Part shown: piece after piece, positions 17,712-41,942 of the stretch
Position numbering within the stretch: position 1 is the first letter of the stretch
Layout: every line of letters begins with the position of its first letter
Source of the DNA: Candidatus Hydrogenedentota bacterium
Lineage (GTDB): Bacteria; Hydrogenedentota; Hydrogenedentia; Hydrogenedentales; JAEUWI01
Length of the DNA stretch: 43,271 bases
Assembly: GCA_016182605.1 (NCBI GenBank)
Contig: JACPGE010000054.1
Coordinates: 1 to 43,271 of the forward strand
Direction: 5' to 3'
Notes under the pieces: model-generated
The model's database searches: none
The model's input: only the letters and a program-made list of their open reading frames with translations
Told to the model about the DNA's origin: nothing
Made by a program: the position numbers and the translations under genes

Positions 17712-18701
17712 TCAGGCGTCCCGCAGGCTCTCCCGCAGCCGTTCGAGGCCTTCTTTGATGGAGACCTGGGGGACGTAACCGAAATCCCGTTTGGCCGCGG
17801 AGATATCGAACCAGTGGGCGGTGGCGAGCTGGCGCGCGACGAAGCGGGTCATCATGGGTTCGTCTTCGCGGCCGAAGAGGTGGTAGAGGCCCTCCATAAG
17901 GGCGCCGGCGTAGTAGGCGGCATTGGCGGAAATGCGCTTGGTCACGGGGGGCACACCGGCGGTATCGAGAATGGCATTGATCAATGCGGCCATGGCCATG
18001 GGTTCGCCGTTGGAGATGAAGTAGGCCTTGCCCGCGCAGGGCGCGTCTGGGGTGGCGGCGTCGAGTGCGAGCACATGGGCGAGGGCGGCATTGTCGATGT
18101 AGGTGGAGTCCACGAGGTTGTCACGGTGGCCCACGATGCGGATACGGCCCTGGCGGCCGCGATCGATGAGCCGCGGCACGAGGTGGTTGTCGCCGGGGCC
18201 CCAGATGAGGTGGGGGCGCAGCGCGACGGTGGTGAGATGGGGGCCATTGGCTTCGAGCACGGCCTGTTCCGCCTCCGCCTTGGTGCGCGCATAGTGGCAG
18301 AGAAAGTGTTCGGCATAGGGCGCGCGCTCGTTGACGCCGTCTTCGTCTTCTCCGCGAAAGGTGACGCTGGGCGTGCTGGTGTAGATGAGCTTTGGGATTT
18401 GGTGCGTCCGGCAGGCCAGCACGATGTTCCGGGTACCCACGACGTTCGGCTGGTAGTAGGCGTCGAGACTGCCCCAGACCCCCGCCTTCGCGGCCGTGTG
18501 CACGACAGCGTCGCAGCCTGCCGCGGCGCGTGCCACGGCCTCCGGATCGGCGATGTCCGCCTGCACCTGTTCGACAGTGAGGTTTTCGAGGTGGGGGTAG
18601 GCGTTTCTCGCAATCGTGCGGACCGTGTCTCCGCGCTCCACGAGCATGCGGGCAATGGCCGTTCCCAAAAAGCCGCCGCCACCGGTAATGAGCACTTTCA
18701 T
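17712..18701 (-). CDS. oleD: 2-alkyl-3-oxoalkanoate reductase OleD
   Basis: This 329-residue short-chain dehydrogenase of the extended/3-beta-HSD type reduces the beta-keto acid made by OleA to the beta-hydroxy acid with NADPH. The Rossmann motif is ITGGGGFLGTAIARML at the N-terminus; the catalytic YxxxK is HYARTK, with the Ser/Thr in YTSTPSVTF. Further features are VVHTAAKAGVWGS and LRPHLIWGPGDNHLVPRLI. Start ATG 18701 has AGGAG eight bases upstream and overlaps the oleC stop (ATGA). Its place directly after oleC, plus oleA and oleB on the same strand, supports OleD over other epimerase-like functions. Confidence 0.92.
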   Translation of the reverse strand: MKVLITGGGGFLGTAIARMLVERGDTVRTIARNAYPHLENLTVEQVQADIADPEAVARAAAGCDAVVHTAAKAGVWGSLDAYYQPNVVGTRNIVLACRTHQIPKLIYTSTPSVTFRGEDEDGVNERAPYAEHFLCHYARTKAEAEQAVLEANGPHLTTVALRPHLIWGPGDNHLVPRLIDRGRQGRIRIVGHRDNLVDSTYIDNAALAHVLALDAATPDAPCAGKAYFISNGEPMAMAALINAILDTAGVPPVTKRISANAAYYAGALMEGLYHLFGREDEPMMTRFVARQLATAHWFDISAAKRDFGYVPQVSIKEGLERLRESLRDA

Positions 18702-20356
18702 GGGAGCTTCTCCTGCGCCCAGACGGTGAGTTTCTCGCGGAAGATCTTGGCGTTGTGCCGCACGTCCACGGGGAAGCTGGGATGAAAGAGGAAGGTGTCG
18801 ATGGAGCTTGTAATGGCATGCTGCGCGGCAAGGGCACGCAATTCGGCTTCGATCTCGCTCTGTGGCGTGGTGTTTCCCTTCACGCATTCGACACACAATA
18901 CGGGCAGGACTTTGGCGTTCTTCACGATGCCCACGAGGGCGGTGCGCCGTACGGCGGGATGCGTGTTGAAGATGCGCTCGCAGGGAATGGTGAAGAGCGT
19001 GCCCGTGGCCGTGACCACGCGGTGCGACTTGCGGCCGCACATCCAGAGCCGGCCCTGCGCGTCGATATAGCCCACGTCGCCCATGCGGTGGTAGACGGCG
19101 CCGTCCTCGCCATAGATCTTGGCAAGCGCCGTTGCGCCGGGCTGGTTAAAGTATTCGCGGGTGACCATGGGGCCCTTCACGCAGATTTCGCCGATTGTGC
19201 CCTGGGGCAGCAGGAGGTCTTCCGACCATGCGGGGATGGGCGAATCGGTGATGCGCACGATGGCGACCGAGACGTCTTCCACGGGGCGGCCAACACAGAC
19301 GCCTGCTCCGTTGTCCGTGGCCGCGGCGGTGTCGTTGATCTGTTCGTCGTGCCCGATGAAGGAGACAGGCAGGGATTCGGTGGCGCCGTAGGAGGGGTAG
19401 ATCTGGACGCCGGGATTCAGCAGGGTGCTGAAGCGCCGCAGGGAGGGCAGATCGGCGGGGGCGCCTGCGCTGATGACGCGCCGCAGTGTGGGGAGCTTCA
19501 CGCCCTGCGCCTCCCCATGGCGGCCGACGATTTCGATAAGTGCGGGCGAGGCGAAGAGGTTGGTGGCCTCGTGGTCCTGAACGGCGGCGACGATGTTCGC
19601 GGGGTTGGCCGTGGCCGGTTTGCTCGCGTCCATGTCCGGAACGATGGCGGCCATGCCCAGCGCGGGCCCGAAGAGGGCAAAGAGCGGGAAGGTGGCGAGG
19701 TCTTTCTCACCCGGACGGATGCCGTAGTCCTTGCGCAGAATTTCGACCTGGGCGTTGAAGATGCCGTGGGTGTAGACGGCGCCCTTCGGGATGCCGGTGC
19801 TGCCACTCGTGAAGAGGATGGCCGCGAGATCGTCGTCGTGCATTGGCGCCATGGGATAGGGCGTGGCCTCGCGCGTCATCAGCGCGGACAGCGTGTGGCC
19901 GCCCCAGAGTTTGGGTCCGCCCACGGTGATGCGAATCTTGAGATGGCGTTTGGCCCAGCCAAAGAGTACGCGGGCCACGTGGGCCTTGGGAATGCCCACA
20001 AAGGCCTCCGGTGCGGCCTCATCCAGGCAGGTCTTTAGGTTCTTGATGCCCATGCCGGGATCGACCATGACGGGGATGGCGCCGGTCTTGAAGAGGGCGA
20101 AGGTAAGGGCAAAGAACTCCAGGCTCGGCTTCACCATGAGGACTGTGCGCATGCCGCGGGTGATGCCCGCACGGGTGAGGCCGTGGGCCATGCGATCGCT
20201 CTCGGCGTTCAACTCCGCCAGGGTCCACTGGCTGTAGGCGTGGCGGCCATTCGCGCCGCGCTTGCCCTGCACGATGACGGCGGCGTCATTCGGGTGTTCA
20301 AGCGCAACGCGGGGGAGTTGGGCGGCGATGTTTCGGTTGTCTGGTGTGGGATTCAT
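18698..20356 (-). CDS. oleC: Beta-lactone synthetase OleC (AMP-dependent synthetase fold)
   Basis: This 552-residue ANL-superfamily enzyme converts the 2-alkyl-3-hydroxy acid to a beta-lactone using ATP. Motifs in order are AAILFTSGSTGIPKGAVYTHG (phosphate loop), IYPSYGATESLPV (A5), YHRMGDVGYIDAQGRLWMCGRKSHRV (A7-A8 hinge region) and a C-terminal HNAKIFREKL with the adenylation Lys. The N-terminal NRNIAAQLPRVALEHPNDAAVI and MVDPGMGIKNLKTCLDEAAPEAFVGIPKAHVAR are typical of OleC rather than of fatty-acyl-CoA ligases. It is coupled to oleD by a 4-base overlap. It is separated from oleB by a 4.2-kb insertion of unrelated genes. Confidence 0.92.
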   Translation of the reverse strand: MNPTPDNRNIAAQLPRVALEHPNDAAVIVQGKRGANGRHAYSQWTLAELNAESDRMAHGLTRAGITRGMRTVLMVKPSLEFFALTFALFKTGAIPVMVDPGMGIKNLKTCLDEAAPEAFVGIPKAHVARVLFGWAKRHLKIRITVGGPKLWGGHTLSALMTREATPYPMAPMHDDDLAAILFTSGSTGIPKGAVYTHGIFNAQVEILRKDYGIRPGEKDLATFPLFALFGPALGMAAIVPDMDASKPATANPANIVAAVQDHEATNLFASPALIEIVGRHGEAQGVKLPTLRRVISAGAPADLPSLRRFSTLLNPGVQIYPSYGATESLPVSFIGHDEQINDTAAATDNGAGVCVGRPVEDVSVAIVRITDSPIPAWSEDLLLPQGTIGEICVKGPMVTREYFNQPGATALAKIYGEDGAVYHRMGDVGYIDAQGRLWMCGRKSHRVVTATGTLFTIPCERIFNTHPAVRRTALVGIVKNAKVLPVLCVECVKGNTTPQSEIEAELRALAAQHAITSSIDTFLFHPSFPVDVRHNAKIFREKLTVWAQEKLP

Positions 20357-21220: not shown

Positions 21221-22564
21221 CTATCCCTTCTTCTGATTGCATAGACGGTGAACCAATTGGGCATTCTCTGGAATGGTCTGTCCACCACGCCAATACTGTT
21301 CCGTATGGTCCAAAGCAGCGTCGTCTATCAGACGAATCTTCTGACTACAGAGCGCACAAGTCTGGTTCGCCTCGAACAGTTCCTTCTTAAGTTGCTGTGA
21401 AAAGACACGTTTTCCGTCGTTAGGAATAGAACTGGAATCAAGGACTGCTTTCAATCGCTCGTACCAAATGTCAAACGTATAAGCAAGTCGTGTGGCTTCT
21501 CCAGTTGCTCGTCGCACTCTATCAACCCACTGTGCGTCTGTATGGATCAGGTCAAGGTACTCTTCATAAATAGAATCTGCGGCACGAGTGATTTGTCCAA
21601 GATCATGATTGGCAAATGAGGTGGCGACGATCTGAAAAATAGCAGCATTCGGACGCGACGCCCACTCGCCCGAGCTCTTAGAGTTTGGCTTTGTGATCTC
21701 ACTTTTCAGTCGAAAGCCCCGTTCCCCAAAAACAGTTATGCAAGCTCGCATGGACTTTTCAAAAACTTTCCTGTACTCGTCAATTTTGTCGCCCCCAGCG
21801 TCTTTGTAAGTGTCCAAAAATTCGTTCAAAAACTTCTTGAGCCCAGATAGGCATTTATGGTGTGTTCTTTCATAGAATGCGAGAAAGCGAAGCACAAGCG
21901 CGCGATCCTGCATTCGCTTGTCAACATTGCTCAGATTGAGGCATCCACGGAAGTTTTCATTTGTGGCTAGAACTTTAATGAGTGCGTTGAGGGTTCCTCG
22001 ATACAGGCAATTTCTTATTTCCATATCATTCAACTTCACGCCACCGGTATTGAGCCGCTCAAACACTATGAAATGAATGTCAGGACTTGAACTGCTAGAG
22101 AGTTCAAATGATCGAAGGACGCAATCCTCAAGCTTATGCTGATATTTCTCCGGCAGATCTTTGAAATGTTTTTCATTCAAGTCTGTCAGTATGTCAAGCC
22201 TCGACAGCTTGTAGTGATTATCGAAATAGTTGAAGACGGATGTCAGGCGCTGAAGACCATCGATCACTTCATACTTCCCGTCCTCTGTCTTTGCAAGGTA
22301 GACGACGGGGACCGGTATATCCAATAGAAACGATTCGATCAATTTGGCTGCCCTGACCTTGTCCCAAACATAGTTTCGTTGCCACTCAGGGTCGATAATT
22401 ATTCTACCAGTCTTTTGCCAACGATGGAGCTCGGACAGGCTCCGGTCAGCTTTGTCGAGAGTGATTCTCTGATCCGGAGATGCATTCAGTTCCCCTTCGT
22501 CAAGTGACTCCAGATCATCGACTTCTTCTTGTTCGGTTTGTTCTGCAGATAGAGTTTCGTCCAT
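21221..22564 (-). CDS. DUF262 domain protein with C-terminal HNH nuclease motif
   Basis: This is a 447-residue protein; GGAG lies seven bases before ATG 22564. After an acidic N-terminus (EQEEVDDLESLDEGE), residues 40-220 form a DUF262/ParB-like domain: IDPEWQRNYVWDKVRAAKLIESFLLDIPVPVVYL and YEVIDGLQRLTSV (DGQQR-type motif), then FERLNTGGVKLNDMEIRNCLYRG. The C-terminus is a compact HNH finger: CALCSQKI...DHTEQYWRGG...LVHRLCNQKK. DUF262 proteins include the GmrS half of the GmrSD type IV restriction enzyme; in this protein the NTP-binding and nuclease parts are on one chain. A defence role against modified phage DNA is likely but inferred. Base composition is lower in GC than the surrounding ole/pfa genes. 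Confidence 0.85.
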   Translation of the reverse strand: MDETLSAEQTEQEEVDDLESLDEGELNASPDQRITLDKADRSLSELHRWQKTGRIIIDPEWQRNYVWDKVRAAKLIESFLLDIPVPVVYLAKTEDGKYEVIDGLQRLTSVFNYFDNHYKLSRLDILTDLNEKHFKDLPEKYQHKLEDCVLRSFELSSSSSPDIHFIVFERLNTGGVKLNDMEIRNCLYRGTLNALIKVLATNENFRGCLNLSNVDKRMQDRALVLRFLAFYERTHHKCLSGLKKFLNEFLDTYKDAGGDKIDEYRKVFEKSMRACITVFGERGFRLKSEITKPNSKSSGEWASRPNAAIFQIVATSFANHDLGQITRAADSIYEEYLDLIHTDAQWVDRVRRATGEATRLAYTFDIWYERLKAVLDSSSIPNDGKRVFSQQLKKELFEANQTCALCSQKIRLIDDAALDHTEQYWRGGQTIPENAQLVHRLCNQKKG

Positions 22565-22695
22565 CGGTTCTCTCCGTAAATCGTTTTGCCTATAAGGGCT
22601 ATATGTTTGCCACTCATTTACTCAGTTTCAGACTTTCAATGCATCAATGCAAGCTCAAAGCACGACGATGCAAAGGGCTTTCAGTAGGCGTGGCC

Positions 22696-23859
22696 TCAGA
22701 ACTCCTTCTCGATTGCCAAGAGATATGAGTATGGATTGTCTCTAAGAATATGGTTCTTCTCGCGATTATACAAGACGCCCGAAGCAACCAATGATATGCC
22801 GACACCAGCCAGAATTGCGTAGGGCGATGATAGTCCCATTAGCGCGAGAGCACCTGGCGGAGTTGATGAAAAAAAAGCTACTTTCAGGTAGTTCGTGGTG
22901 AGCCATTTGATTCGCTCATCCGTGAGGCACGCCTTTAATTCGTTGAAGGCGGGCAAGACTTTGTTTTCATGAGTATCGGAAACCTGCTGTCGGATCGCGT
23001 CAACCGGCATATCAAAGGAAATGTCCTTAGTAAGCGATTCGATCTCGACACGGAATCGCCGCAGTTGGTCGGCACGTTTCCGGCGGAACTTGATGATTCT
23101 TGAAATTGGCGTCTCCGGATCAATGTTCAGACTTTTGAATGCAAAATGAGATAAAATGCCTTGTGCAAGAGTCGAAGGCATCCCACGCATCATTGATCGT
23201 CCTTGTGCAAGAGTCGAAGGCATCTCGCGTTTCATTGATCGTCCGTGATGGAAACGGAAACCAATGCGATCTTCATATTCGGGGATAAGACTATGGAGCG
23301 AGCCATCCACCCTAAACGTAGTAGCCAGACGCCCCGCCGAAGGGGTTGACGTGAGTAAGCCTATTCCGCGACTCTCGGACAGTCTCGTTGCCAGTAGCGT
23401 CATGTAAAAATCCGCGAAATGCGTATCGACACGCAGGCGTTTATCATTCTCGGCCTGCGCCAATCCGATGACCTGAACTATGTGACGAACTTCATCTGAT
23501 AATTTTTCCGGATGCAACCGGGCAAGATGTAGAAGAGTGTCGGGCAGTTTCTCCGGGTGGAGATAAACATCATGGGATGAGTCTCCTGCGGAGAGAAGGA
23601 ATTCCGCCGCCTCAGTACTTGACAGATATCGCAGAACATCGTCGGCAAGGTCTTTAATGATTTCCATGCCCGAGTCAACATGCAACGGAATCAATATCTG
23701 TTCATCCGCGCAAGCAGTAGCGGCATCTGACGTGTATGGGCTTTTCAGTGACTGCGGCACGATTGTGTGAATCGTATCCCAGTAAAGAATTGCGTTTTTC
23801 AGCCAAGCGTCATCGCGGATATCGATCCACGGATAGTAGAGCGCCTTTGTGAAAGCCAC
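22696..23859 (-). CDS. DUF6236-like hypothetical protein
   Basis: This is a 387-residue protein starting at GTG 23859, with AAGGA eight bases upstream. The N-terminus (ALYYPWIDIRDDAWLKNAILYWDTIHTIVPQS) is typical of a family I know as DUF6236, found near mobile and defence genes, without known activity. Toward the C-terminus one hydrophobic stretch (GALALMGLSSPYAILAGVGISLVASGVL) could be a membrane segment. Residues 206-233 contain an in-frame tandem duplication of 14 residues (GRSMKREMPSTLAQ / GRSMMRGMPSTLAQ). GC is lower than in the ole genes. It is 131 bases from the DUF262 gene on the same strand, so the two may form one system. Confidence 0.6.
   Translation of the reverse strand: MAFTKALYYPWIDIRDDAWLKNAILYWDTIHTIVPQSLKSPYTSDAATACADEQILIPLHVDSGMEIIKDLADDVLRYLSSTEAAEFLLSAGDSSHDVYLHPEKLPDTLLHLARLHPEKLSDEVRHIVQVIGLAQAENDKRLRVDTHFADFYMTLLATRLSESRGIGLLTSTPSAGRLATTFRVDGSLHSLIPEYEDRIGFRFHHGRSMKREMPSTLAQGRSMMRGMPSTLAQGILSHFAFKSLNIDPETPISRIIKFRRKRADQLRRFRVEIESLTKDISFDMPVDAIRQQVSDTHENKVLPAFNELKACLTDERIKWLTTNYLKVAFFSSTPPGALALMGLSSPYAILAGVGISLVASGVLYNREKNHILRDNPYSYLLAIEKEF
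23160..23243. repeat. Tandem duplication of 42 bp inside the DUF6236-like gene
   Basis: Two adjacent copies (23160-23201 and 23202-23243) differ at only a few positions near cccacgca/ctcgcgtt. Because 42 is a multiple of three, the reading frame is kept and 14 residues are duplicated. Confidence 0.9.
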
Positions 23860-25771: not shown

Positions 25772-25820
25772 ATCGGAACGGGGGATGTGGCCGGTGCCGT
25801 AACGTTGGTGTAGGGCATGC

Positions 25821-26867
25821 TTACCATTCGAGGGCGAGCATCATGCAGTTGAGGCCGGAGCCGATGCCGAGGAGGCCGACGCGATCGCCGGGACGGAGAA
25901 AGCCGCGCTCGGCGGCGATGGCCGTGGTGATGGGCAGGGAGACCGTGCCCATGTTTCCGAGAAAGGGGAAGGTGACAAAGTCTTTGGACTCCGGCACGCC
26001 GATGGATTTCAGAATGGCGTCTTTGTTCGCCTGTCCCACTTGGTGGCAGATCACCTTATCCACGTCTTCCTTTTTCCATTGCTGTTCGGCGAGAAAGGCG
26101 TTCCAGGTCTTGACGCCCAATTCCACACCGTACTTCAACACGTTCACGGCATCGGTGGTCATTTCCTGTTTGCGCAGGCCCTCGCCCAAATCGCGGAGCC
26201 CCCAGTGGCAAAGGCCGTGGTGTTCGGGCGCGGCACAGGCGGTGCCGCCACGAAGCCTGTGGGCAGGCGTGGGCAGTTCAAAGGACGCGTCGGTGAGGAG
26301 CACGGCGACAGCGCCCGATCCGCCGGTCATGGTCGCCAGGGATTTGATGAAGGTGTCCATCGTGCGGTGTTGCAGCATATGCGCGATGGTCTCTTCGACG
26401 ATGTCGCGCGCCGTCTCGCAGGAGACCACGAGGCCCGCGCGGATCTGGCCGAGTTCGATACGGTTCGCGATGTCGAGCATGCCGTTGAGCACCCCCAGGC
26501 ACGCGTTGCTGATGTCGTAGATGAAGGCGTTGCCCCCAATGCCCAGCTCCGCGGCAACGCGGCAGGCGGTGGCGGGCTCAAAGTTGTCGCGGCCGACGCC
26601 GGTGTAGACGACGGCGCCGATCTCCTCCGGGTGGATGCCGCTCTGTGCGAGGGCCTTGCGGGCGGCGGCGATGGCGCCGTCCGAAAGTCGGTGGCCATCG
26701 GGCCACCAGCGGCGCTCCAGGATGCCTGTAAGCGATTCCAACTGGCCGGGGGCAATGTGGAGCGATTCATAGACGGGACACAGTTGCTCCTCGAGTTCGG
26801 CAGAAGTCACGACAATGGGGGCCAGTTCATAGCCGATGGTGGCCACCTGTACACGGCTGTACTTCAT
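25821..26867 (-). CDS. oleA: OleA: head-to-head acyl-condensing thiolase
   Basis: This 348-residue thiolase-fold enzyme joins two fatty acyl thioesters to a 2-alkyl-3-ketoacid, the first step of long-chain olefin synthesis. The active-site Cys lies in YDISNACLGVLNGML; the His is in VICHQVGQANKDAI and the Asn in FLGNMGTVSLP. The N-terminal YELAPIVVTSAELEEQLCPVYE and LESLTGILERRWWPDG are typical of OleA rather than FabH. Start ATG 26867 has AGGA about eight bases upstream and shares ATGA with the pfaC stop. OleA is thus translated directly behind the PUFA synthase, which points to that enzyme as its substrate source. Confidence 0.93.
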   Translation of the reverse strand: MKYSRVQVATIGYELAPIVVTSAELEEQLCPVYESLHIAPGQLESLTGILERRWWPDGHRLSDGAIAAARKALAQSGIHPEEIGAVVYTGVGRDNFEPATACRVAAELGIGGNAFIYDISNACLGVLNGMLDIANRIELGQIRAGLVVSCETARDIVEETIAHMLQHRTMDTFIKSLATMTGGSGAVAVLLTDASFELPTPAHRLRGGTACAAPEHHGLCHWGLRDLGEGLRKQEMTTDAVNVLKYGVELGVKTWNAFLAEQQWKKEDVDKVICHQVGQANKDAILKSIGVPESKDFVTFPFLGNMGTVSLPITTAIAAERGFLRPGDRVGLLGIGSGLNCMMLALEW

Positions 26868-29800
26868 GGGGCGGTCCTGTGGTAACGGAGCGAGAAGTTT
26901 TTCATTTGATAGATGATGAGTCCGTCCACTTTCAGGAAACCTTCGGCACGGAGGGTGCGCGTGGTGTCGTCCACGGCGGTGATGACAGCATCCACCATGA
27001 TGCGCTTGTTCTTGGGAATGATCTGCCCGCGGTAGACCCACTCGTGGCGTTCGCCGAGTACGGGCGATTCGAAGGCGCCGTTCTCGTCCACGCCCCAGCG
27101 GTCGCACGCGACATGCTTCATCAATTGCACAAAGGATTCCAGCCCGAGCGAACCCGGACACACAGGATCTTGGTAGAAGTGGGCCTGAAAGAACCACGCC
27201 CCGGGGTCCACCTGGGCCTCGCCGCGGATGAAGCCCAGCCCATGGGGTCCTCCATCGGGAATGTAGAGCGCGATGGTGTCCACCATGCGCAGGGCGGTGT
27301 CCGGGTAGGGAGCATTCTTGGGATAGGGCAGGGAGTGGGCGCGCGCCACCTCGGCATCGGTCGGGCGGTAGGGGTTCACGCCCTGGACGCCCAGTTGGGT
27401 CGCGAGGGCCTCCGCGGTGAAGAAACCGAAGTAGGTGGTGCCTTCATAGACCGTGCCCGCGTCACTCTCAAGGCGCATGTGGAAGTGCTGGATGATCATG
27501 CCGCCCGACTGCGAGATGCCCGTGACCTTCACATGCATGGTGAGGGTGCCCGAGTTGCGCGTGATGGGGAGATGCTGGACGGCCACGCCGCCGAGGTTGC
27601 GGAATTTCAGGTCGACGTCACTGGTGAGGGCGGAGCCCATGTAGGCCGCGAACCAGCCGCAGGGCTGGAGGGCGATCTCGAGGAGCACGGCAAAGGGCAT
27701 CTCCGGTTGGCGGTTCGCGTCGAAATACCACGCGTCCACGGGAACCTCATATTCGCTCTCGACGGTGCCGCCTTCTTTCAGCATCCACGGCGCCGCATCG
27801 AGACCGGTGACGCGATCCATGAAGAGATAGGGCGGCCGCGGCAGGCGCGCGAGAACGCGGCCCTCATCGAAAATCGTGTAGGGTGCGCCGAAGGCTTCGG
27901 AAGGCTTGCCCTCTGCATAGGCGAGGATCTGTTCGTAGGTAAAGAGGACCGGCTTCGGCGTGTTCGCAGGCGCAGGAAGGGCCTGCCACAGGGCTTCCAC
28001 GCCTTCGCGGGTCTGGCCGCTGAGCCGCACCGTCATGTCATTGATGTCCACAATGGGCTTGCCGTCGGCATACATGCGCGCATCGGCGACCACCGAGGGC
28101 TCGGGCCCGTAGTAGAGCCGCTTGAGATGCACTTCGTAGGTGACGAGGCGGGTCGATTCCAGCACCTGGCCGCGGCACTTGAGGCGGCTCGTGACGCCCG
28201 GTATGGGTTCCCAGGCGCATGCGCCCTCCTCGCCGAGCCAGCCCAGGCGCATGAGATGGATGCGCAGGGTGTGGAGGCAGCACTCATACATGAGCGTGCC
28301 AGGCATGACCTTGTCGTCGACGAAGTGACACGTGATGAACCAGTCATCGGGGTGGATGTCGGCTTCCGCACGAATGACGCCCAGGCCATACTTGCCGCCG
28401 TGGGGATTCATCTCGATGACGCGGTGCACGAGTTGGAGCTTGCCGGAGGGGAGCGTCAGCGGCCGTTCGAGGGGCAGGCGGGCGAAAGCCTCGCCGAAGC
28501 AGGCGGCGAGCCGGCCCTGGCGGAGCGCTTCGATCTGGGGGGCGCCGTAGGACTCGATGTCGTTGCGCGGCGCCAGCTCGCGCCAATCGCCGGGAAGACC
28601 CGTCTCGCCCACATGCAGTTGAATCTTTGGTTCGACGACGCCCTGGCCCGCTTCGAGTTCCGCCGGCGTGAAGAAGCCCGCACACCCGTTGCGCATGGTG
28701 ATGTAGGGCTGGCCGTTGATGGCGCCGTCGTAATGAAAATGGAAGAACCACGGGTTTCCGTGGCGGAAAAAACGATCGATGCGTATGTCGTAGCGGATGA
28801 CTTCACCGGGGACGGGCAGTCCGCGATGAAAGGTTACTTCCGCGTCGAGCAGGCGGTACATGGCCAGGCCCTGGGTCTTGAAGTCGATCCCCAGGTAGCC
28901 CGAAAGGAAGAGGTCGGCCTGGCCCGCTTCCACCGAGAGGGCGGTGGGCATGCGTCCGCCGTCGAGGTACCAGCCCTGGTGGGGGACATCGTGCTCCGTG
29001 ACGACGCGGCCCGAACCCATGGAGCGCGGTTCGCCCTCAAGTGCGGTGATGCGATCGACAAACATGAGCGGCTCGTCGGGCAACCGCACGCGGGTGGGGT
29101 AGAGGTCGATGGGGGCAAATTCTTGGCCGAGCATCCTGCCGATTTTGCCGATGGCGAATTCCATGCAAGCATTGCGGTCAAAGACGACCTGGTCTCCCGC
29201 GGGGCGCTGCACGGTGTAGGCAGGTACGTGCGCGGGCGTAGCAATGGCCGGCAGGAAATCGCCGGAAAGTCCAGGTTGGGCCGCGACCTGCGCCAGGGTC
29301 TCGTAGAAGAGGGCGTTCAACTCCAGAAAGGCGTTGTGCGCGCGGCTGTTGGCGGCGTCGGTGCGTTCCCACTGGGTGATCAGGGCGGACTCGCCCGCCG
29401 TGGCAGCGTATGCAGGCTCGGGGGTGTACGGTATGGACGGCGCGGAAACGGGACGTGAAACGACACGGGCCACGAGGGGAGCGGCGGCCTCCGTCACGAC
29501 GGCTACTTTCCGGGGCAGCGGCGGCGTGAAGGGCGGCGCGCCCGTGGGGACCGAGACGACGATGCCGTGGGTGTCTGGTGCTTCGGCGTCGGATGCGTCG
29601 TAGAGCGGCGCGAGATCGATATTGACCCCCTCGACCGCGAGGGCGCCGAGTCCGCGGAGGACCTGGGTGAGCGCGGGCTGTCCCGGCGCGCAGAAGGCCC
29701 GGGAGAGATGGGGGGTATTGCCCAGAATGCGCGAGATCATGCGCGCGCAGGAGTTGCCGGGCCCCAGTTCGATGAAAAGGCGCGCGCCGTCTTTGTAGGC

Positions 29801-32800
29801 GCTTTCGATGACCGCAGGGAAATCCACCCCCTCAATGGCGTTCGCAAGAATAGAGTCCGCGGCGCTGTCGCGCGTGACCGTATAGGATTTGCCCCACGCG
29901 CCACTATAGAAGCGCACACCCTCGGGCGGGAAGCAGTCGAAGAGATGGAGGCCGCGATAGTCTTCTTTCACTTCCTCCACGATCTCGCAGTGCACGGTGG
30001 TGACGCCTTCCAGGGGAATGAACTGGCACTGCAATTTGGCAATGAGTTTTTCCACGGCCTGGCGGTTGCCTCCGATGACGGACTCGTGCAGTGTGTTTGT
30101 GATGAGGGGATACACCTTCTTCCGGTTCTTCAGGGCCTTGCGCGCCACCTGCATGGGCCGGTCAATGACACCAAGCACCCAATCGACCGCCTCACTGCCG
30201 GGCAATTCCCAGCGTTTCTTGGCCGCGGTGCATTCGCCGGCAAGTTCTTCGGTGAAGAGCGGTGAGCCCTTCATGCGCGTGAGCATGGCGTCGCGATCGC
30301 GCCACACGCGCAGGGAAAAGAAGCCCGCCGTTTCGCCCAGGCTGTAGCCGATGACGGCCTTCGGTTCGGCGCCAAAGAGACGCATGAGATCGCTCACAGC
30401 CGTGCCGAGAGTGACCTGGCCGAAGATCATGGCCATGTGATTCTGGTTGATGGCATCCATCGGCACGCCGTCCCAGAAGATGTTGGGCTGGAACTGGGAG
30501 CGGAGGTGCGCGTTCTCGTTGTCCTGGCGGTGCGCGATGGCCGGCCAGTGCAGGAGCAGTTCGCGGCCCATGCCCGGGAAGTGGTTGCCGGAGCCGGGAA
30601 AGACGAAGGCGATGTGACCGCTTTCCGCGAGCGGCGCGGGGGAGTAGAAGACGCGATCCTTGAAGGCGAGTTCTGGCTTGGTCTGGCCCGTGTTCAAGGG
30701 TTCGTCCGGCCGCTCTTCCAGGTGGGCGCGCGCCATGTCGAGCTGCTTGTTCAGTTCGTGGGCGCTCTGCGCCACGCAGGCCAGCCGGAGCCGTGCGGGC
30801 TGCGTGTGACGGTGCTTGCGCCACCAGGCGCGCGCGAGGCATTCAATGGAGCACGGCGTAAGGTTGTCCGCCATGTCCTGCAGAGCGCTGATCTGTTTGA
30901 GGAGCGTGGCGCCATCCTTGCCGGCAAGCACGAAGAGGGCCTCGGAGCGTTCCCCAAAGAGCGCACCGGTATCGCGTGGCGCGGTGGCATCCGCTTCAAG
31001 AAGCACTCCGCCCTGGCGGCCGCCGAGACCGGGTGTGAGTATGGCCGCCCTGCGTGGTCCCTGGGCGCGGTTGTGCAGCCAGTGGCGGGACGTGGCGGGT
31101 ACGTGGAAATAGGATTGGGACTGCGTCTCCATCTCCAGGAGGGCCGGCGCATTCATGGCGGGCTGCACGTGATGGTAGAGGGCCAGCGCGGACTTCAGGA
31201 CGGCGAAGAGGCCCGTGGCACAGCCTGCATGCCCGATGTCGAGCTTGTGGTTGCCCAGATAGCAGCGATCGTCCTCGGCGTGTTCACCGCTGGGGGGGAG
31301 GCTGTGGGCAGATGCGCGGCGGACTGCGTCCACGAGGGACTCCGAGTGCGTCGCGGCGATCTCCCAGTAGCCGCAGGTATGCAGCGGCAGATCTTCGGCG
31401 GCCTGGGTTGCTGCGAGCGCGACATCGGAAAGCAGCGCGTAGATGGGATCGCCCGCGGCCCGGGCATCGCTCTCGCGTTTGAGCACAAAGGCCACGGCGC
31501 CTTCCGCAAGGATCAGTGGCGTTTCAGCGCCATTGTCTTGTTGATGGGCCATTGCCGCGCGTGCGTCGCCGGGGAAATCCACGGCACCGGCAATGGCCGT
31601 GTCGATAACGCCTTCGTGCAGGAGCCGTGCAGCGGTTTGCAGTGCGGCGATGCCGGAGTTGTCCTCCGCGGATACGGTGAAACTCGGTCCGCCCAGGCGC
31701 AATTCCCGCGCGATGCGGCTGGCGACGACGCTGCCCAGATTGCCCATGACGCGGTTCGCATTGAGCGCCGGGCCCGCGGCATCGCGCAGTTCAGAGAGCC
31801 AGCCGGCGCGCGCCGTATCGTCGAGGTGGAGACCTTGTGCCTGCGCCCAATGATCCACCTGGTTGGCTATCTGCCAGCGCACGGAAAAGTTGGTGCAGTT
31901 GGGATCGAGTCCGAGGCCGATGAAGACCCCCGTGCGCGCTGCATCGTCTCCCGTGCCCCGGGCATCTTCCCACGCGTTGGCGGCAGTTTGCAGCATGAGC
32001 AACTGTTGCGGCAGCGCTTCTTCCAGTTCTTTTGGCGGAATGCGGAAGCGGTTGATGGGAACGTCCACGGTGCTGATGCCGAAGCCTTCGGGCAGGGCCT
32101 TGCCATGGTGTGCCTGGAATGCGGAGGAAGCGTCGAGTCCCCACCAATCCTGGAAGGGCTCGGGCTCGTGTCCGGTCTCGACGTTGAAGAGCCGTTCGCG
32201 AAGGGCGCGCAGTGAAGTCCAGGGACCTGCGGTGCCATCCATTCCCACGATGGCAATACGCTCCGGGACTTTCTTTGGAAGCGCTGTTCCTATCGATCCT
32301 CGGTTTGCCTCGGTGCCCGCGGGATCCCAGGATTCCAGCAGGATGTGGGCGTTGATCCCGCCAAAGCCGAAGGCACTCACGGCGGCCTTGCGCGTACGCT
32401 CGCCATCGCGCAGGGGCCACGGCGCGGAGTTCTTCGTCACGCGAAAAGGGCTGGTGGAAAACTGCGCGGCGTCTGCGGGGGCGCTGAAACTGGCGGTGGG
32501 AGGCAGGGTCTCGTGGCGCATGGCCAGGAGCACCTTGATCATGGCGGCGGCGCCCGCGGCAGTGAGGCAGTGGCCGATATTCGATTTTACCGAGCCGAGC
32601 ACACACTGACCGGGTTTCCAGTCGGCGGCCTCCCAGAGCGTGTTGAGGCTGGCGAGTTCGACAGCGTCGCCCACGGGCGTGCCGGTGGCGTGGCATTCGA
32701 TGAGGTCCACATCGTGGGGGGACCAGCCGGCCTCGGCATAGGCGGCGCGCATGGCGCGAAGCTGCCCCTCGGATGTGGGGGCCAGGAGCTTGCCGCCGAC

Positions 32801-33667
32801 GTCGTTCGAGAGGCCTGCGCCGCGCAATACGGCGTAGATGCGATCATGGGCTTGCAGGGCGTCGTCGAGGCGCTTTAGCACGAAGATGCCCGAGCCTTCG
32901 CCAACGATGAGCCCCTTGCCATCGTGAGAGAAAGGTGCGCAGCGGCCCTCGGGGGAGAGGGCGCGCAATTGGGAGAAGCCCATCTGGGTGAAGAGGGGGT
33001 CGGGACGCGACACACCGCCCGCGAGCATCATGTCGGCTTTGCCCGCCTGCAATTCGGAGGCGGCCAGCTTGATGGCATAGAGGGACGAGGCGCAGGCGGC
33101 ATCCAGGGTGAAGGCGGCGCCGCCGAGTCCCAGGGCGTTGGCGGCCACGGCGGCGGGCAGGCCGGCGCTGTGGAGATTGCGCAGGTCGGTGCGCGGTTGA
33201 ATGGCGGTCTTGCCGAGCAGGCGTTCTTCGAAGGCTGCGCCGAGGTATTCCCAGGCGATCCTGGAGGCCGATTCCGTGGGGAGCACGAGATTGCCGACGA
33301 TCAGGCCCGTACGATCGAGATTGCCCGTTTGCGCGCCCGCGTCGAGGAAGGCCTGTTGCGCGGCATAGAGCAGCACATGAAAGACGGGATCGAGTTGGGC
33401 CGCCGCTTCGGGGCTGATGTCGAGGATGTCATGATCGAGGGGGCACTGTGCCAGATCCAGAAAGCAGCCCTGCGTGGCATAGACCCGATCGGGCCGGGCA
33501 TCGCCCGGTGTGAAACAGCGATCGGGGGCCACGCTCCAGCGTCCCGGCGGCACATCGCGCGTGCTGACCCGTCCCGCCGCGATGTTCTCCCAGAACTGCG
33601 CCGCGCTGGGCGCATCGGGAAAAGCCGCGCCGAGGCCGACAATGGCGATGGGCGTACGTTTATGCAT
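26864..33667 (-). CDS. pfaC: PfaC-type PUFA synthase subunit: KS-CLF-AT-DH-DH
   Basis: This is a 2267-residue iterative type I fatty-acid/polyketide synthase. Domains: ketosynthase 1-450 (active Cys192 in DAACASS, His in ECHATGT and SNIGH); chain-length-factor domain about 465-900, where the Cys is replaced (FTVSAEDNSG, near 667); acyltransferase about 1030-1390 (Ser1109 in GYSLGE); and two FabA-like dehydratases with active His1781 (CHFVDDKVMPG) and His2163 (AHFYQDPVCPG). These dehydratases set the cis double bonds of polyunsaturated chains. The internal AT replaces a separate PfaB, as in the myxobacterial Pfa3 type, but I find no AGPAT (HX4D) domain of the kind reported there. It starts 26 bases after pfaA, and its stop overlaps oleA. 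Confidence 0.92.
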   Translation of the reverse strand: MHKRTPIAIVGLGAAFPDAPSAAQFWENIAAGRVSTRDVPPGRWSVAPDRCFTPGDARPDRVYATQGCFLDLAQCPLDHDILDISPEAAAQLDPVFHVLLYAAQQAFLDAGAQTGNLDRTGLIVGNLVLPTESASRIAWEYLGAAFEERLLGKTAIQPRTDLRNLHSAGLPAAVAANALGLGGAAFTLDAACASSLYAIKLAASELQAGKADMMLAGGVSRPDPLFTQMGFSQLRALSPEGRCAPFSHDGKGLIVGEGSGIFVLKRLDDALQAHDRIYAVLRGAGLSNDVGGKLLAPTSEGQLRAMRAAYAEAGWSPHDVDLIECHATGTPVGDAVELASLNTLWEAADWKPGQCVLGSVKSNIGHCLTAAGAAAMIKVLLAMRHETLPPTASFSAPADAAQFSTSPFRVTKNSAPWPLRDGERTRKAAVSAFGFGGINAHILLESWDPAGTEANRGSIGTALPKKVPERIAIVGMDGTAGPWTSLRALRERLFNVETGHEPEPFQDWWGLDASSAFQAHHGKALPEGFGISTVDVPINRFRIPPKELEEALPQQLLMLQTAANAWEDARGTGDDAARTGVFIGLGLDPNCTNFSVRWQIANQVDHWAQAQGLHLDDTARAGWLSELRDAAGPALNANRVMGNLGSVVASRIARELRLGGPSFTVSAEDNSGIAALQTAARLLHEGVIDTAIAGAVDFPGDARAAMAHQQDNGAETPLILAEGAVAFVLKRESDARAAGDPIYALLSDVALAATQAAEDLPLHTCGYWEIAATHSESLVDAVRRASAHSLPPSGEHAEDDRCYLGNHKLDIGHAGCATGLFAVLKSALALYHHVQPAMNAPALLEMETQSQSYFHVPATSRHWLHNRAQGPRRAAILTPGLGGRQGGVLLEADATAPRDTGALFGERSEALFVLAGKDGATLLKQISALQDMADNLTPCSIECLARAWWRKHRHTQPARLRLACVAQSAHELNKQLDMARAHLEERPDEPLNTGQTKPELAFKDRVFYSPAPLAESGHIAFVFPGSGNHFPGMGRELLLHWPAIAHRQDNENAHLRSQFQPNIFWDGVPMDAINQNHMAMIFGQVTLGTAVSDLMRLFGAEPKAVIGYSLGETAGFFSLRVWRDRDAMLTRMKGSPLFTEELAGECTAAKKRWELPGSEAVDWVLGVIDRPMQVARKALKNRKKVYPLITNTLHESVIGGNRQAVEKLIAKLQCQFIPLEGVTTVHCEIVEEVKEDYRGLHLFDCFPPEGVRFYSGAWGKSYTVTRDSAADSILANAIEGVDFPAVIESAYKDGARLFIELGPGNSCARMISRILGNTPHLSRAFCAPGQPALTQVLRGLGALAVEGVNIDLAPLYDASDAEAPDTHGIVVSVPTGAPPFTPPLPRKVAVVTEAAAPLVARVVSRPVSAPSIPYTPEPAYAATAGESALITQWERTDAANSRAHNAFLELNALFYETLAQVAAQPGLSGDFLPAIATPAHVPAYTVQRPAGDQVVFDRNACMEFAIGKIGRMLGQEFAPIDLYPTRVRLPDEPLMFVDRITALEGEPRSMGSGRVVTEHDVPHQGWYLDGGRMPTALSVEAGQADLFLSGYLGIDFKTQGLAMYRLLDAEVTFHRGLPVPGEVIRYDIRIDRFFRHGNPWFFHFHYDGAINGQPYITMRNGCAGFFTPAELEAGQGVVEPKIQLHVGETGLPGDWRELAPRNDIESYGAPQIEALRQGRLAACFGEAFARLPLERPLTLPSGKLQLVHRVIEMNPHGGKYGLGVIRAEADIHPDDWFITCHFVDDKVMPGTLMYECCLHTLRIHLMRLGWLGEEGACAWEPIPGVTSRLKCRGQVLESTRLVTYEVHLKRLYYGPEPSVVADARMYADGKPIVDINDMTVRLSGQTREGVEALWQALPAPANTPKPVLFTYEQILAYAEGKPSEAFGAPYTIFDEGRVLARLPRPPYLFMDRVTGLDAAPWMLKEGGTVESEYEVPVDAWYFDANRQPEMPFAVLLEIALQPCGWFAAYMGSALTSDVDLKFRNLGGVAVQHLPITRNSGTLTMHVKVTGISQSGGMIIQHFHMRLESDAGTVYEGTTYFGFFTAEALATQLGVQGVNPYRPTDAEVARAHSLPYPKNAPYPDTALRMVDTIALYIPDGGPHGLGFIRGEAQVDPGAWFFQAHFYQDPVCPGSLGLESFVQLMKHVACDRWGVDENGAFESPVLGERHEWVYRGQIIPKNKRIMVDAVITAVDDTTRTLRAEGFLKVDGLIIYQMKNFSLRYHRTAP

Positions 33668-33693: not shown

Positions 33694-36600
33694 TCAGGAC
33701 GGCTGGGGCACGGGGGAAGGCGCCGGCAGCGTATTGTTCCGGAAGGCCTCATTGAGCGACGCGTTCAAGGTGCATTCATAGCCGGTGATGCGGGCGACCA
33801 GTTCCTGGCTCTGTGGATCGACGAATTCAATCACGGCGAAAGCCCGTTGAGCGTCGTGTTCCAGGACCTGCGCCGTGATCCGCACGCCCTCGCGGGGAAA
33901 GCTGCTCTTGAACTGGCGGTATGCGCCCAGTTGCGTGGGCAGCGATCCGGTGTTGTATTCCTTGAAGCTCCACAGAATCATCATCTGGAAGCTGCTGTCG
34001 ATTGCGAGGGGATCGGCGATCCAGGCGTTGCGGAGGGGCTGCTGTATCCACGACGCGGGGGCGGGCGCTTTCTTCACGCGGGCCGCGAGGATATCCGGCG
34101 CGCCGTCCACCTGATCGAGGGATTGAAACTCGGGCCCGTGGAAGAGGTGGCCGCTATCATAGAGTCCGCCATTGTTGTAGGCGGCCGCTTTCAGGGGCTG
34201 TTCCACGATCCGGGGAGCGTCGGTGGGCAGGGCCTCGCGCAGCACCACAACAGCCGCCGCATGGCGGAAGCGTTCGCCCTCCAGCGAGACGGGGACAAGC
34301 CATTGATCGCCGCTGCGCTGCGCCTTGCCGGTCTTGATATCGAGCGGCACGGTTTCATCTTGTGTGAGGGTCACCCCCTTGAGCACGCGCAGGTTGTCGA
34401 GGCCGTGAAAGCGCAGTCCCGGGTTCTCGTGGAGCGCGCCCTGAGCGAGCCATTCGAGCATGACCGCCACGGGCAACACGGCCTTGTTGTTCAAGACGTG
34501 GGAACGGAGAAAGGGATATTCCGCGACGGAGAGGCCCAGGCTGAAGGCGACTGTGGCGGCCTCCGCGCCCGGTTCACGCACGCCGGGAATGGGACCGCCC
34601 ATGACGACGAGTTCCGCGGGCGGTATGGATTCTTGTGCGAGGGTGTCGACGAGGAAACGTGCGCCGTCGTGCAGCCCGATGAGGCCCACGCCCTCCTTGC
34701 GGAAGACTTCGGCGAGGGAGGCATCCACCATGCCGCCCGCCCAGGGACCCCAGTTGAAGGCGCAAACCCGGCACTGGGGCCGGCGGCGCGACTCACGCTG
34801 GGCGATCTTGTTGAGGATTTCGTTGGCGGCGGCGTAATCCACCTGGCCCACGCGGCCGAAGCGTCCCGTGGAAGAGGAGAAGAGCGCGATAATGCGAAGG
34901 TCGTCGTCTTGTGTGGCGTCGAGCAGGAGTTGGATACCGTCGATCTTGGTGCCGAAGACAAAGGCAAACTGTTCGGGCGTCTTGTCGGCAATGTGCCGGT
35001 CGGCGAGCACGCCCGCGCCGTGGACGAGGCCGCGGATGGGGCCGTAGTGTTCGCGGACGGTGGCAACGGTCTGCGCAACAGCGTTTGCATCGCGGATGTC
35101 GGCTTGCAGATAGACGGCGCGTGCGCCCGTGCCTTCGATGCGCGCCAGGGTCTGCAGGGCGGCGCGGTTGTTCATGGCGCGATCATAGGCCGCCTGCAGG
35201 GTCTTCGGTGTGAGACCGGATTCCTGCTGGAGCAGGGCCTGCTTGATGGCTTTCTCCTCGTCCAGCGCGGCGAGCCACGCGGGTTCCGCCTCGGGCGCGG
35301 CGCTGCGGCCTAGCAGGACGAGCGTGGGCTGGGCGGCTTCCGCGAGGGCAATGGCCGTTGCCGCCGTGACCCCGCGCGCGCCGCCCGTGACGATGACCAC
35401 ATCGCCCTTGTCGAGGGGGAGACGGCTTGCGCCTTCCGGCTGCCATGGAAGCAGGATCAACTGGCGAAGACCGTCATTCGTGAGTGCGAGTTCCACCGGG
35501 CCCGTGGCCAGACAGGTGTCCAGTATCTGGTCCGCCGGTGCGCCGGCGGTGGTGTCCAGGGCGCGGCAATGCAAATGGGTCCACTCCAGCGCGGCCGTCT
35601 TGGTGAGGCCGGCAAGTCCGCCGCCCATCGGCGAAGCGCCGCAGTCTTCCAGTGCGAAGGAGCCGCCCTGCAGCGTGATCGTGATCCACGCGCCCTCGCC
35701 TGCGGCCTGGCGGACCGCGCCAAAGTTCTTCAGGAGTTGAAAGGCGTCTTGCATGAAGGAGGCGCCGGGATCTTCCGGGGCGACCAGGATTACCGTGTCC
35801 GCCTTGGGGGTGGAATGGGTCAACGCGTCCGTCAGGGACGCGCAATGGACCAGTATCTCACGCTGTTGAAGTGCCAGGGCGAGATCCGCGCTCAGAGAGG
35901 CTGGCCCGCCCACGAGCAGCACGGCGCCGGGGGTGAACGCGGGCGCGGCTGCGGGCGCGAACGGCACAAGCGTAAGCTGTGCGGCATGGATGGGATCGCC
36001 CAACCCGGCGGCGCTGGTGTTCGTTTGAATCACAGGCAGGAATGCCTGTGTCCCTGCGGGGGCCGCCTGTGCTTTTGCGTGGGTGCTTGCAAGATGGGCA
36101 GCGACCTGACGCAGGGTCTGAAGGCGTCCCAGGTCTTCCGGCCCAATGGCCGGCAATTCGGGCATGCGATCCTTGATGGCGGAGAGAATCTCGACGCGCT
36201 TGATGGAGTCGATGCCGAGATCGGCATCCAGCGCCATGTCGAGTTCGAGCATGTCGACGGGATAGCCGGTCTTTTCCGCGACCGTGTTCAGGAGGACTTT
36301 CTCAATGCGGCTGGCATCCACTGATGGTGCGGCCTGAGATGCTGCGGGTGCCGGTGCGGACGGGGTCATGCCTTTGGCAAGATGTTCGACGACCTGCCGC
36401 AGGGTTTGGAGACGGCCGAGCTCTTCCGGCCCGATGGCGGGCGCTTCTGGAAGCTGATCCTTGAGCGCGGAGAGAATTTCCACGCGCTTGATGGAGTCAA
36501 TGCCGAGGTCGGCATCGAGGGCCATATCGAGTTCAAGCATATCGACGGGATAGCCGGTCTTGTCCGCCACGGTGGCCAGGAGCACGCCTTCGATCTTGTT

Positions 36601-39600
36601 GGCATCGGCGGCGGGTACGCTGTGCGGGGAGGCGGCCTGTGCCATGCCACGGGCAAGGTGTTCAACGACCTGGCGCAAGGTCTGGAGGCGTCCCAGTTCC
36701 TCGGGCCCGATGGCGGGCGCCTCCGGAAGCTGATCCTTGAGCGCGGAGAGAATTTCCACGCGCTTGATGGAGTCGATGCCGAGATCGGCGTCGAGGGCCA
36801 TGTCGAGTTCGAGCATGTCGACGGGATAGCCCGTCTTGTCCGCAACGGTGCTCAGCAGGACAGCCTCGATACGCCGGGTGTCCGCTCCACGCGGTTCCGT
36901 TGCCACGGGCGCAACGGTTGGCGCGATCGCTGGTGCGGCGGCCGGGGCCTGGGGCGCGGGCTGCGGGGCGAAAGCTGCGGGTGCAGCAAAGGTCTGTGCC
37001 ACGGGGTGGCCGAGCAATTGCCGGAAGGTTTCGAGCGCGGCCTTCTGTCCCTGAAGGAATTGTTCATGCAACGCGGCGGTGCGCTCCTGCATCTGTTGCA
37101 GCAGGAGCAGGCCTTCATGCATGGACGCGGACGCGTGCGCGGTCTGCGGCGCCGCAGTCGCCATGCGCGGGGCCGGGCTCGCAGGCTGCTGGGGAGTTGC
37201 CACAAACGGTGGCGTTGCGGCGATGGGCCTGGGGGCCGCGGGCGCTTTGGGTTTACGCGGTGTCACGTAGTTGGCACCAGATATCTTGTAGGTGAGCTTG
37301 GGCTTCGCACCGGGTACGGGAAGGGGTGCGAGCGCGATGCCTTCGTTCCACGTTGTGAGCGTGAGGGCGTGGCCCAGCGCGCTGAGTTCTGCCAGGGCGC
37401 GCCCAAGGTCTTCGATGCCGTGGCGCTTGCCCGCGGACGCATCCAGGGAAATCATGGCCACATCGTCACCGGGCAGAATGGCCTTGACCAGTCCGGCGAG
37501 GCGTTTGCCTGGGCCCACTTCCACGAAGGTGCGGATGCCCGCATCGTACATGTGCTGAATCTGATCGACAAAAGCCACCGGGTTGGCGAGTTGCTGGGCG
37601 AAGAGGGTCTTCGCGGCCTGGGGATCTTCGGGATACGGGGCGCCGGTCGTGTTGGCATAGACGGTGGTATGCGGCGTGCTCCACGAAACGGGCTTCATGG
37701 CTTCGAGGAGCGGCGCGGCAGCTTGGGCCACGGCGGCACTGTGGAAGGCAGCTGCAACGGGCAGGCGCGTGAAGGAAAGCTTCTGCTCCTTGAGTACGGC
37801 CTCCACCTGCGCCAGATCGTCCAGCGTTCCGGAGATCACCACCTGATCGGGCGCATTGTGATTGGCAATGACCACGCCCGTCTTTGCGGAGTCGAGCACT
37901 GCGGCGACGGCTTCCTTGCCCGCCTTTACCGCGGTCATTCCAGAGCCGCTGCCGGCCTGGGCCGCCATGAGTGTGCCACGCAGCCGCGCGAGCATGAGAA
38001 AATCCGGACGCGTGAGGGTGCCTGCGGCATGGAGGGCGGTGAGTTCACCGAAGCTATGTCCCGCAACGGCGTCGGCGTGCAGTCCAAAGCGGCGAAGCAC
38101 TTCGAGTGCGGCGAGCGAAATGACGCCAATGGCAGGCTGGGCCACCTGGGTCTGTGTGAGGTGGGCCTCTTGGGCCTTGCGCGCACTGTCGTTGAAGGCC
38201 GGTGGCGGGAAGATGGCGTTGCAGGGACGATCGGCGCCGGGAACGCCCGAGCCGCGCGCGACGTCTTCCGCGTTTTGGAGGGCCTGCAAGGCCTCGGGGA
38301 ACTGGCAGGCGAGATCGCGCAGCATGCCCACGTATTGGGCGCCCTGACCGGGGAAAAGCAGGGCCACGGGACCTGGGGCCGGTGTCGCATCGTAGTAGAT
38401 GCCCGCAGGGAGGGACCAGCGCAACATGGCGCTGTTCTTGGCCAGCGCGTCCAGGGCCGTCGCAATCTGCTTCGCGGAATTTTCTGCGGTGGCGGTAAAG
38501 GCGAGCCGTGCGCCTGCGCGCGGATCAAAGGACTCGCGTGCGGCGCGCGCGCGGTGCTGAAAGGCATTCCAGTCCGGTGCTGCGGCGAGTTGCTGCAACT
38601 GGGCCTGCAACGCGGCATTGGTTGCACCGGAAATCGCGACGAGTTCGATGTTGCCTTCCCAGTCGGGGGCGCCCTTCACGGGCGAGGCCTCTTCCAGCAC
38701 GCAGTGAAAATTGCTGCCGCCAAAGCCCAGGGCGGAGACTGCCGCGCGGCGTGGATGATCGGGCGTGGCGAGCCAGGGCCGTTTCGCAGTGTTCACGTAG
38801 AAGGGGGTAGCGTCTTCCCGGAGAATAGGCAAGGGCTCCTGCACCTTGATGGTGGGGGGCAGGGTCTTGTGGTGCAGCGCGAGGGCGGCCTTAATGATGC
38901 CTGCGGCACCTGCGGCAGCCTTGGTGTGGCCAATCTGGGATTTCACGGAGCCGAGTGCACACCACGGGCCTGCATCGCTCTTGCCGTAGACTTCGTTCAG
39001 GGCCTTAATCTCTGCGGCGTCTCCCGCGGCGGTACCCGTGCCATGGGCTTCGACGAGTTCAATGCTTGCGGGGTCCACCTGGGCGTCGTCGTAGGCGCGG
39101 CGGAGCGCGCGGGTCTGACCTTCGGCGCTGGGCGCATAAATGGCATCGCCCTTGCCATCGCTGCTGGATCCGATGCCCCGCAACACGGCGTAGACCTGGT
39201 CGCCGTCCCGTTCCGCGTCTTCGAGGCGCTTCAACACCACCATGCCCAGGCCCTCGCCCAGTATGGTGCCGTCGCCCGCGGCGTCGAAAGGTTTCGCGTT
39301 GCCCGTGGGGGAGAGGGCGGGCGTTTTGGAGAAACACATGTACATGAAGATGTCGTTGAAGGTGTCCACGCCGCCGGTGACGACGAGATCGGACTTGCCC
39401 GTGGCGAGTTCCATCGCGGCGAGGTGGAGGGCACTGAGCGAGGACGCACATGCGGCGTCGACGACACAGTTCGTGCCGCCAAGATTGAGGTGCTTGGTAA
39501 TGCGGCCTGCGACCACGTTGCCGAGAAGACCCGGAAAGGAATTTTCCTGCCAGGGCACATAGGATTCACCGATGCGATCGAGAACGTCCTGCGTGGTGCT

Positions 39601-41741: not shown

Positions 41742-41894
41742 GTATACGTCGTTACCCGCATTAAAGCTCAAGGGGATTTTCCAGACGCTCTCCCGTTCCG
41801 CGTGCCCCCCATAAATTGCCCAAGGAAGGGAGAAGCGGGCCGGCGAAAACCTCGAAGGGAAATCCCAAAATGCCAGAGAGACAAAAAGCCCCTT

Positions 41895-41903
41895 ATAGTA
41901 GCA
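41895..41903 (-). promoter_or_regulatory. Candidate extended -10 upstream of pfaD
   Basis: On the minus strand TGCTACTAT (followed by AAGGGG) resembles an extended -10 (TGnTATAAT), about 155 bases before the pfaD start and 40 bases inside the IS border. No good -35 is present. Confidence 0.25.
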
Positions 41904-41942
41904 TTTTTGCTGGCGGAGAACGAAACGTAGAAGCCGGCGCCG

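What the first reader, a model, noticed from the sequence alone, without database searches (positions are those of the whole stretch)
26855..26880. pfaC and oleA share ATGA: translational coupling of synthase and condensing enzyme
The pfaC stop and oleA start overlap by four bases. In related myxobacterial Pfa3 proteins an AGPAT domain is reported to release the fatty acid into phosphatidic acid; I see no such domain here. OleA occupies the next position instead. It may take polyunsaturated acyl chains directly from the synthase ACPs, rather than from the CoA pool.
Basis: partly seen in the sequence, partly recalled or inferred. Interest (0 to 1): 0.78.

Follow-up and report, generated by a model that had tools for sequence, protein, structure and literature searches.

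The report
Known fatty-acid synthase and hydrocarbon operon
In a Hydrogenedentota bacterium, the gene for the last polyunsaturated-fatty-acid synthase subunit overlaps by four bases the gene for the enzyme that joins two fatty chains into a long hydrocarbon; this gene arrangement, and the idea that the chains pass straight from one enzyme to the other, are already in the literature.

Summary
On the minus strand pfaC (33667-26864) and oleA (26867-25821) share ATGA at 26867-26864, and Pfam detects no AGPAT or thioesterase domain in either synthase. The overlap is ordinary: five of fifteen same-strand junctions listed in this window are -4 overlaps. In 57 related loci with pfaC directly upstream of oleA the spacing runs from -4 to +1976 nt; 17 are exactly -4, but the four nearest relatives have 149-687 nt. 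Gene order is conserved; the overlap is not.

Allemann et al. 2019 (PMC6463001) concluded from E. coli co-expression that Shewanella OleA takes acyl chains from Pfa ACPs rather than from CoA. Tandem pfa-ole clusters, and 'Type I' clusters with a pfaBC fusion, are described in Geobacter and a planctomycete (PMC3098273, PMC4882568).

The 'no AGPAT, so OleA instead' argument is weak.

Verdict: an ordinary new member of a known cluster type.

The parts
40077..41978 (-). pfaD-like enoyl reductase gene (homology begins about residue 165, so the true start is probably downstream of the listed GTG)
   Evidence: TIGR02814 pfaD_fam 618 bits, above its cut-off of 449
33694..40080 (-). pfaA: KS - malonyl AT (GHSFG, Q and R selectivity residues present) - 3 ACP - KR - DH; TTGA overlap with pfaD
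   Evidence: Pfam; motifs; junction
26864..33667 (-). pfaC as a pfaBC fusion: KS - CLF - AT - FabA-like DH repeats; no AGPAT or TE
   Evidence: Pfam; AT best match PfaB 9ry8 E=1.4e-28; no myxobacterial-type C-terminal extension in 56 PfaC sequences
29678..30700 (-). PfaB-type AT domain of PfaC (about residues 1015-1330), catalytic Ser1109 in GYSLG
26864..26867 (-). ATGA: pfaC stop / oleA start overlap
25821..26867 (-). oleA, head-to-head acyl condensing thiolase; E97, C123, H275, N305 conserved
   Evidence: best PDB match 3fk5 and the other OleA entries (E about 1e-59); NCBIfam PRK09258 496 bits
24551..25435 (-). oleB, alpha/beta hydrolase (beta-lactone decarboxylase of the pathway)
   Evidence: Pfam Abhydrolase_1, haloalkane-dehalogenase-like; synteny in relatives
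18698..20356 (-). oleC, olefin beta-lactone synthetase
   Evidence: NF045785 767 bits against a cut-off of 850
17712..18701 (-). oleD, 2-alkyl-3-oxoalkanoate reductase; ATGA overlap with oleC
   Evidence: NF042423 475 bits against a cut-off of 580; junction
21221..23859 (-). insertion between oleB and oleC: DUF6236-like gene and GmrSD/HNH (DUF262) gene, unrelated to the pathway
   Evidence: Pfam, PADLOC; lower GC

Best explanation
This is a pfaD-pfaA-pfaC(BC fusion)-oleA-oleB-(insertion)-oleC-oleD locus for a polyunsaturated long-chain olefin. The Pfa synthase builds a polyunsaturated acyl chain on the tandem ACPs of PfaA; OleA takes two chains, most likely directly from the ACPs, and condenses them head to head; OleC, OleD and OleB finish the alkene. 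The four-base overlap is an ordinary operon junction that probably lets ribosomes ending pfaC reinitiate on oleA. It helps expression but is not the cause of channelling. Shown here: gene order, domains, catalytic residues, the overlap and its non-conservation. Inferred from published work on relatives: ACP hand-off and product type. Inferred only: actual coupling in this organism.
For: Domain and family assignments; OleA catalytic Glu/Cys/His/Asn conserved; OleC and OleD match olefin-pathway models, OleD and, among the olefin models, OleC scoring highest on the Shewanella-type ones; conserved pfaC-oleA adjacency in 57 of 92 OleA loci; the closest named relatives are Hydrogenedentota MAGs and Geobacterales; published pfaDABC-oleABCD tandem in G. 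bemidjiensis, which makes C31:9 (PMC4882568); pfaBC-fusion Type I clusters proposed to feed Ole (PMC3098273); OleA-ACP hand-off inferred in vivo (PMC6463001); reinitiation at -4 overlaps is common (PMC10666635).
Against: I found no reported product for any Hydrogenedentota. OleC and OleD fall below their NCBIfam olefin-equivalog cut-offs. The 385-nt oleA-oleB gap and the roughly 4.2-kb stretch before oleC mean that oleBCD may be expressed separately or poorly. Published in vitro descriptions of other OleA proteins used acyl-CoA (cited in PMC6463001). The acyl-ACP evidence is one in vivo study and indirect.
Confidence: 0.82

Rival explanations
1. Release-then-reactivation: the PfaB-type AT in PfaC (or a separate thioesterase) off-loads the chain, a CoA ligase reactivates it, and OleA uses acyl-CoA from the pool.
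For: PfaC has a PfaB-type AT; PMC12895367 cites hydrolase activity reported for some PfaB homologues; 4HBT-type proteins exist elsewhere in the genome; X. campestris OleA was described with acyl-CoA (cited in PMC6463001).
Against: The 31:8 ketone forms in a fadD-null E. coli and a catalytically dead OleA lowers EPA equally (PMC6463001), although not tested for this protein; no thioesterase gene was found by Pfam in the pfa-ole segment.
Confidence: 0.12
2. The pfa synthase makes ordinary membrane PUFA (EPA or DHA type) and OleA is only an incidental neighbour working on type II FAS chains.
For: Standalone PlsC-type acyltransferases exist in the genome that could esterify PUFA. Some OleA proteins act on type II FAS chains (cited in PMC6463001).
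Against: pfaC-oleA adjacency is kept across Hydrogenedentota, Geobacterales and Planctomycetota; the OleA is 60-62% identical to Shewanella and Psychromonas OleA but only 42-45% to the OleA of order-mates without pfaC beside it.
Confidence: 0.05

Closest known systems
Type I pfa-like cluster with linked ole genes (Geobacter bemidjiensis, other Geobacter, Gemmata; PMC3098273, PMC4882568)
   Same: Gene order pfaD-pfaA-pfaC-oleA-oleB-oleC-oleD, pfaBC fusion, no AGPAT reported; -4 pfaC-oleA overlap recurrent in Geobacterales loci
   Different: Host lineage (Hydrogenedentota); defence-like insertion splits oleB and oleC; no pfaE next to the cluster; product unknown
Shewanella/Photobacterium Pfa plus OleABCD hentriacontanonaene pathway (PMC6463001)
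   Same: OleA 60-62% identical; OleD best matches the Shewanella-type model, and OleC scores higher on the Shewanella than on the Xanthomonas olefin model
   Different: In the Shewanella loci fetched, no pfaC lies upstream of oleA; pfaB is a separate gene in those lineages; pfaT thioesterase not found in the pfa-ole segment here
Myxobacterial PUFA synthase Pfa1-3 (Type L, AGPAT-bearing Pfa3; PMC6731297, PMC4882568)
   Same: ER gene, pfaA-like gene, pfaC-like gene; AT inside the pfaC-like protein
   Different: No C-terminal AGPAT; ole genes follow directly

Membership tests
OleA (head-to-head condensing thiolase) | Catalytic Cys143, Glu117, His285, Asn315 (X. campestris numbering; identities from my own knowledge of that enzyme) | tested here: met
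   C123, E97, H275, N305 align and are invariant in 16 OleA sequences
OleA (head-to-head condensing thiolase) | Linked oleB, oleC, oleD | tested here: met
   All three present downstream, interrupted by two genes
OleA (head-to-head condensing thiolase) | Non-decarboxylative condensation of two acyl thioesters | not testable with these tools
   Needs an assay
Type I pfa-like cluster (Shulse and Allen 2011) | pfaBC fusion | tested here: met
   KS-CLF-AT-DH repeats in one 2267-aa protein
Type I pfa-like cluster (Shulse and Allen 2011) | KS domain grouping with Type I in the KS tree | not tested
   No KS tree built; full-length PfaC is about 47-51% identical to Geobacterales and planctomycete homologues
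Type L / myxobacterial Pfa3 | C-terminal AGPAT domain | tested here: not met
   No PF01553 in PfaC; 56 PfaC sequences end 2-12 residues past window residue 2261
PfaB-type terminal acyltransferase | Tyr before the catalytic Ser (GYSxG); malonyl-selective Gln/Arg pair absent | tested here: met
   GYSLG at 1107-1111, no Gln at -28..-26 and Gly at +25, against Gln and Arg in the PfaA MAT; 38 of 41 aligned hits have GYSLG
PfaB-type terminal acyltransferase | TIGR02816 pfaB_fam above its curated cut-off | tested here: not met
   84 bits against 144.3; still the best AT-family model for this stretch. The match covers profile positions 175-532 of 534
Translational coupling by termination-reinitiation | Intergenic distance between about -8 and +10 nt | tested here: met
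   -4 in the window; 31 of 57 linked loci fall in this range
Translational coupling by termination-reinitiation | Spacing conserved in closest relatives (a sign of selection for coupling) | tested here: not met
   Four same-family loci have 149, 287, 469 and 687 nt; overlap needs at least 12 changes on the OleA tree
Translational coupling by termination-reinitiation | oleA translation depends on pfaC termination | not testable with these tools
   Needs reporter fusions

The most novel reading that the evidence does not exclude
In this lineage OleA is a dedicated, stoichiometric subunit of the Pfa synthase: coupled synthesis with PfaC places it on the complex, so that nearly all polyunsaturated chains go to hydrocarbon and little or none to phospholipid, with the PfaB-type AT of PfaC serving loading or proofreading rather than release.
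Probability: 0.15. Interest if true: 0.5.

Novelty: new member of a known kind. Interest (0 to 1): 0.2.

Why it matters
It adds a full pfa-ole hydrocarbon locus in Hydrogenedentota (pfaA KS amplicons assigned to Hydrogenedentes were already reported, PMC11837533), and it gives a comparison of 57 pfaC-oleA junctions showing that gene order is conserved while the overlap is not. Direct hand-off from Pfa ACP to OleA remains worth testing in vitro, but the idea is not new.

Tried and rejected
Overlap as evidence for channelling: rejected, because spacing is labile and nearest relatives have long gaps. AGPAT hidden in residues 1390-1560 or the C-terminus: not found. PfaC-OleA fusion in relatives: none, the reading ends in a pfaC stop separate from oleA in all 57. 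Sequence signature of ACP versus CoA use in OleA: I compared the region aligned with the FabH ACP-docking Arg by eye on the alignment; no discriminating residue, inconclusive. PlsC-type gene inside the window (7891-8697): real, but about 9 kb downstream of oleD and paired with a GNAT gene, so not taken as part of the pathway. No structure prediction was run, since sequence matches were already decisive.

Full report
Observation. The window is one whole contig of a 6.76-Mb genome. On the minus strand the order is pfaD (41978-40077), pfaA (40080-33694), pfaC (33667-26864), oleA (26867-25821), oleB (25435-24551), two unrelated genes, oleC (20356-18698) and oleD (18701-17712). The ATGA shared by pfaC and oleA is real. 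The oleA start is where homologues start, and AGGA lies 7 nt before it.

Organism. The window is therefore inferred to be Hydrogenedentota.

Domains. PfaA is KS-MAT-3xACP-KR-DH. PfaC is KS-CLF-AT-DH repeats, i.e. a pfaBC fusion. The second KS-like domain lacks the DACASS-type cysteine motif. No AGPAT or thioesterase domain is found by Pfam in either protein. Fifty-six PfaC sequences end 2-12 residues after window residue 2261, so an AGPAT-bearing extension is absent from the whole set, not lost here. The AT inside PfaC is PfaB-type: the best solved structure is PfaBs (9ry8, E=1.4e-28, next best 2.6e-9), the PfaB of Shewanella baltica described in PMC12895367; the motif is GYSLG instead of GHSFG, and the malonyl-selective Gln and Arg of the PfaA MAT are absent. 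Lofeudo et al. 2026 (PMC12895367) propose PfaB as the terminal acyltransferase and discuss hydrolase activity reported for some homologues.

OleA. Best matches in the PDB are the OleA entries (3fk5, 3row, 3s21 and others, E about 1e-59), with the catalytic Glu, Cys, His and Asn conserved. OleD scores highest on the Shewanella-type model, and OleC scores higher on the Shewanella-type than on the Xanthomonas-type olefin model, both below the equivalog cut-offs.

Is the overlap special? In this window five of fifteen listed same-strand junctions are -4 overlaps. Of 92 related OleA loci, 57 have pfaC directly upstream within 3 kb; the gap is -4 in 17, zero or negative in 20, 1-20 nt in 12 and over 20 nt in 25. 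The four same-family loci have 149, 287, 469 and 687 nt. On an OleA tree (quick method, SH-aLRT support) the overlap state needs at least 12 changes, and the window groups with the same-family long-gap loci (support 85, not starred). In the same clusters -4 overlaps are more frequent at oleC-oleD (30/56) than at pfaC-oleA (17/57). Huber et al. 2023 (PMC10666635) report that -4 and -1 are the commonest spacings in prokaryotes, that coupling is nearly lost at about 20 nt, and that overlaps are enriched among complex subunits. Coupling in this organism is thus plausible, but it is not required for the pathway.

Mechanism in the literature. Allemann et al. 2019 (PMC6463001) co-expressed pfaA-E with Shewanella oleA in E. 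coli and obtained the 31:8 ketone in a fadD mutant; wild-type and active-site-mutant OleA lowered EPA equally. They concluded that the in vivo substrate is acyl-ACP and that OleA contacts the Pfa ACPs. Shulse and Allen 2011 (PMC3098273) described Type I clusters with a pfaBC fusion and proposed that they feed olefin synthesis; Yoshida et al. 2016 (PMC4882568) describe pfaD, A, B, C, oleA, B, C, D and pfaE in tandem in G. bemidjiensis, which makes C31:9, and state that AGPAT occurs only in myxobacterial Type L clusters.

Assessment. Remaining unknowns are the product in Hydrogenedentota, the PPTase used (a single PF01648 hit lies on another contig), and whether the insertion between oleB and oleC leaves the pathway functional.

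Noticed in passing
window 21221-23859: The ole operon is split by a lower-GC insertion with a DUF6236-like gene and a GmrSD_N/HNH (DUF262) gene; the latter matches PADLOC NsnA (E=3.5e-85) and PD-T4-2_A, so a defence-type gene appears inserted between oleB and oleC.
   Followed up: partly
window 7891-9539: A GNAT Acetyltransf_5 gene (8694-9539) overlaps by 4 nt a PlsC-type acyltransferase gene (7891-8697); this looks like an OlsB/OlsA-type ornithine-lipid pair.
   Followed up: partly
window 25696 and the oleA-oleB gap 25436-25820: Palindromic repeat CCCACGGTCCTCCGTGGGAA and similar inverted repeats in the 385-nt oleA-oleB gap.
   Followed up: no
window 42122-43249: DDE transposase (DDE_Tnp_1 with DDE_Tnp_1_assoc) divergently placed just upstream of pfaD at the contig end.
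   Followed up: no
L090, L108, L112, L113, L088: Desulfuromonadales loci with 1.5-2.0 kb between pfaC and oleA; the content of these stretches was not examined.
   Followed up: no
window 40077-41978: The pfaD ORF has about 160 residues before the PfaD homology; the true start is probably internal.
   Followed up: no
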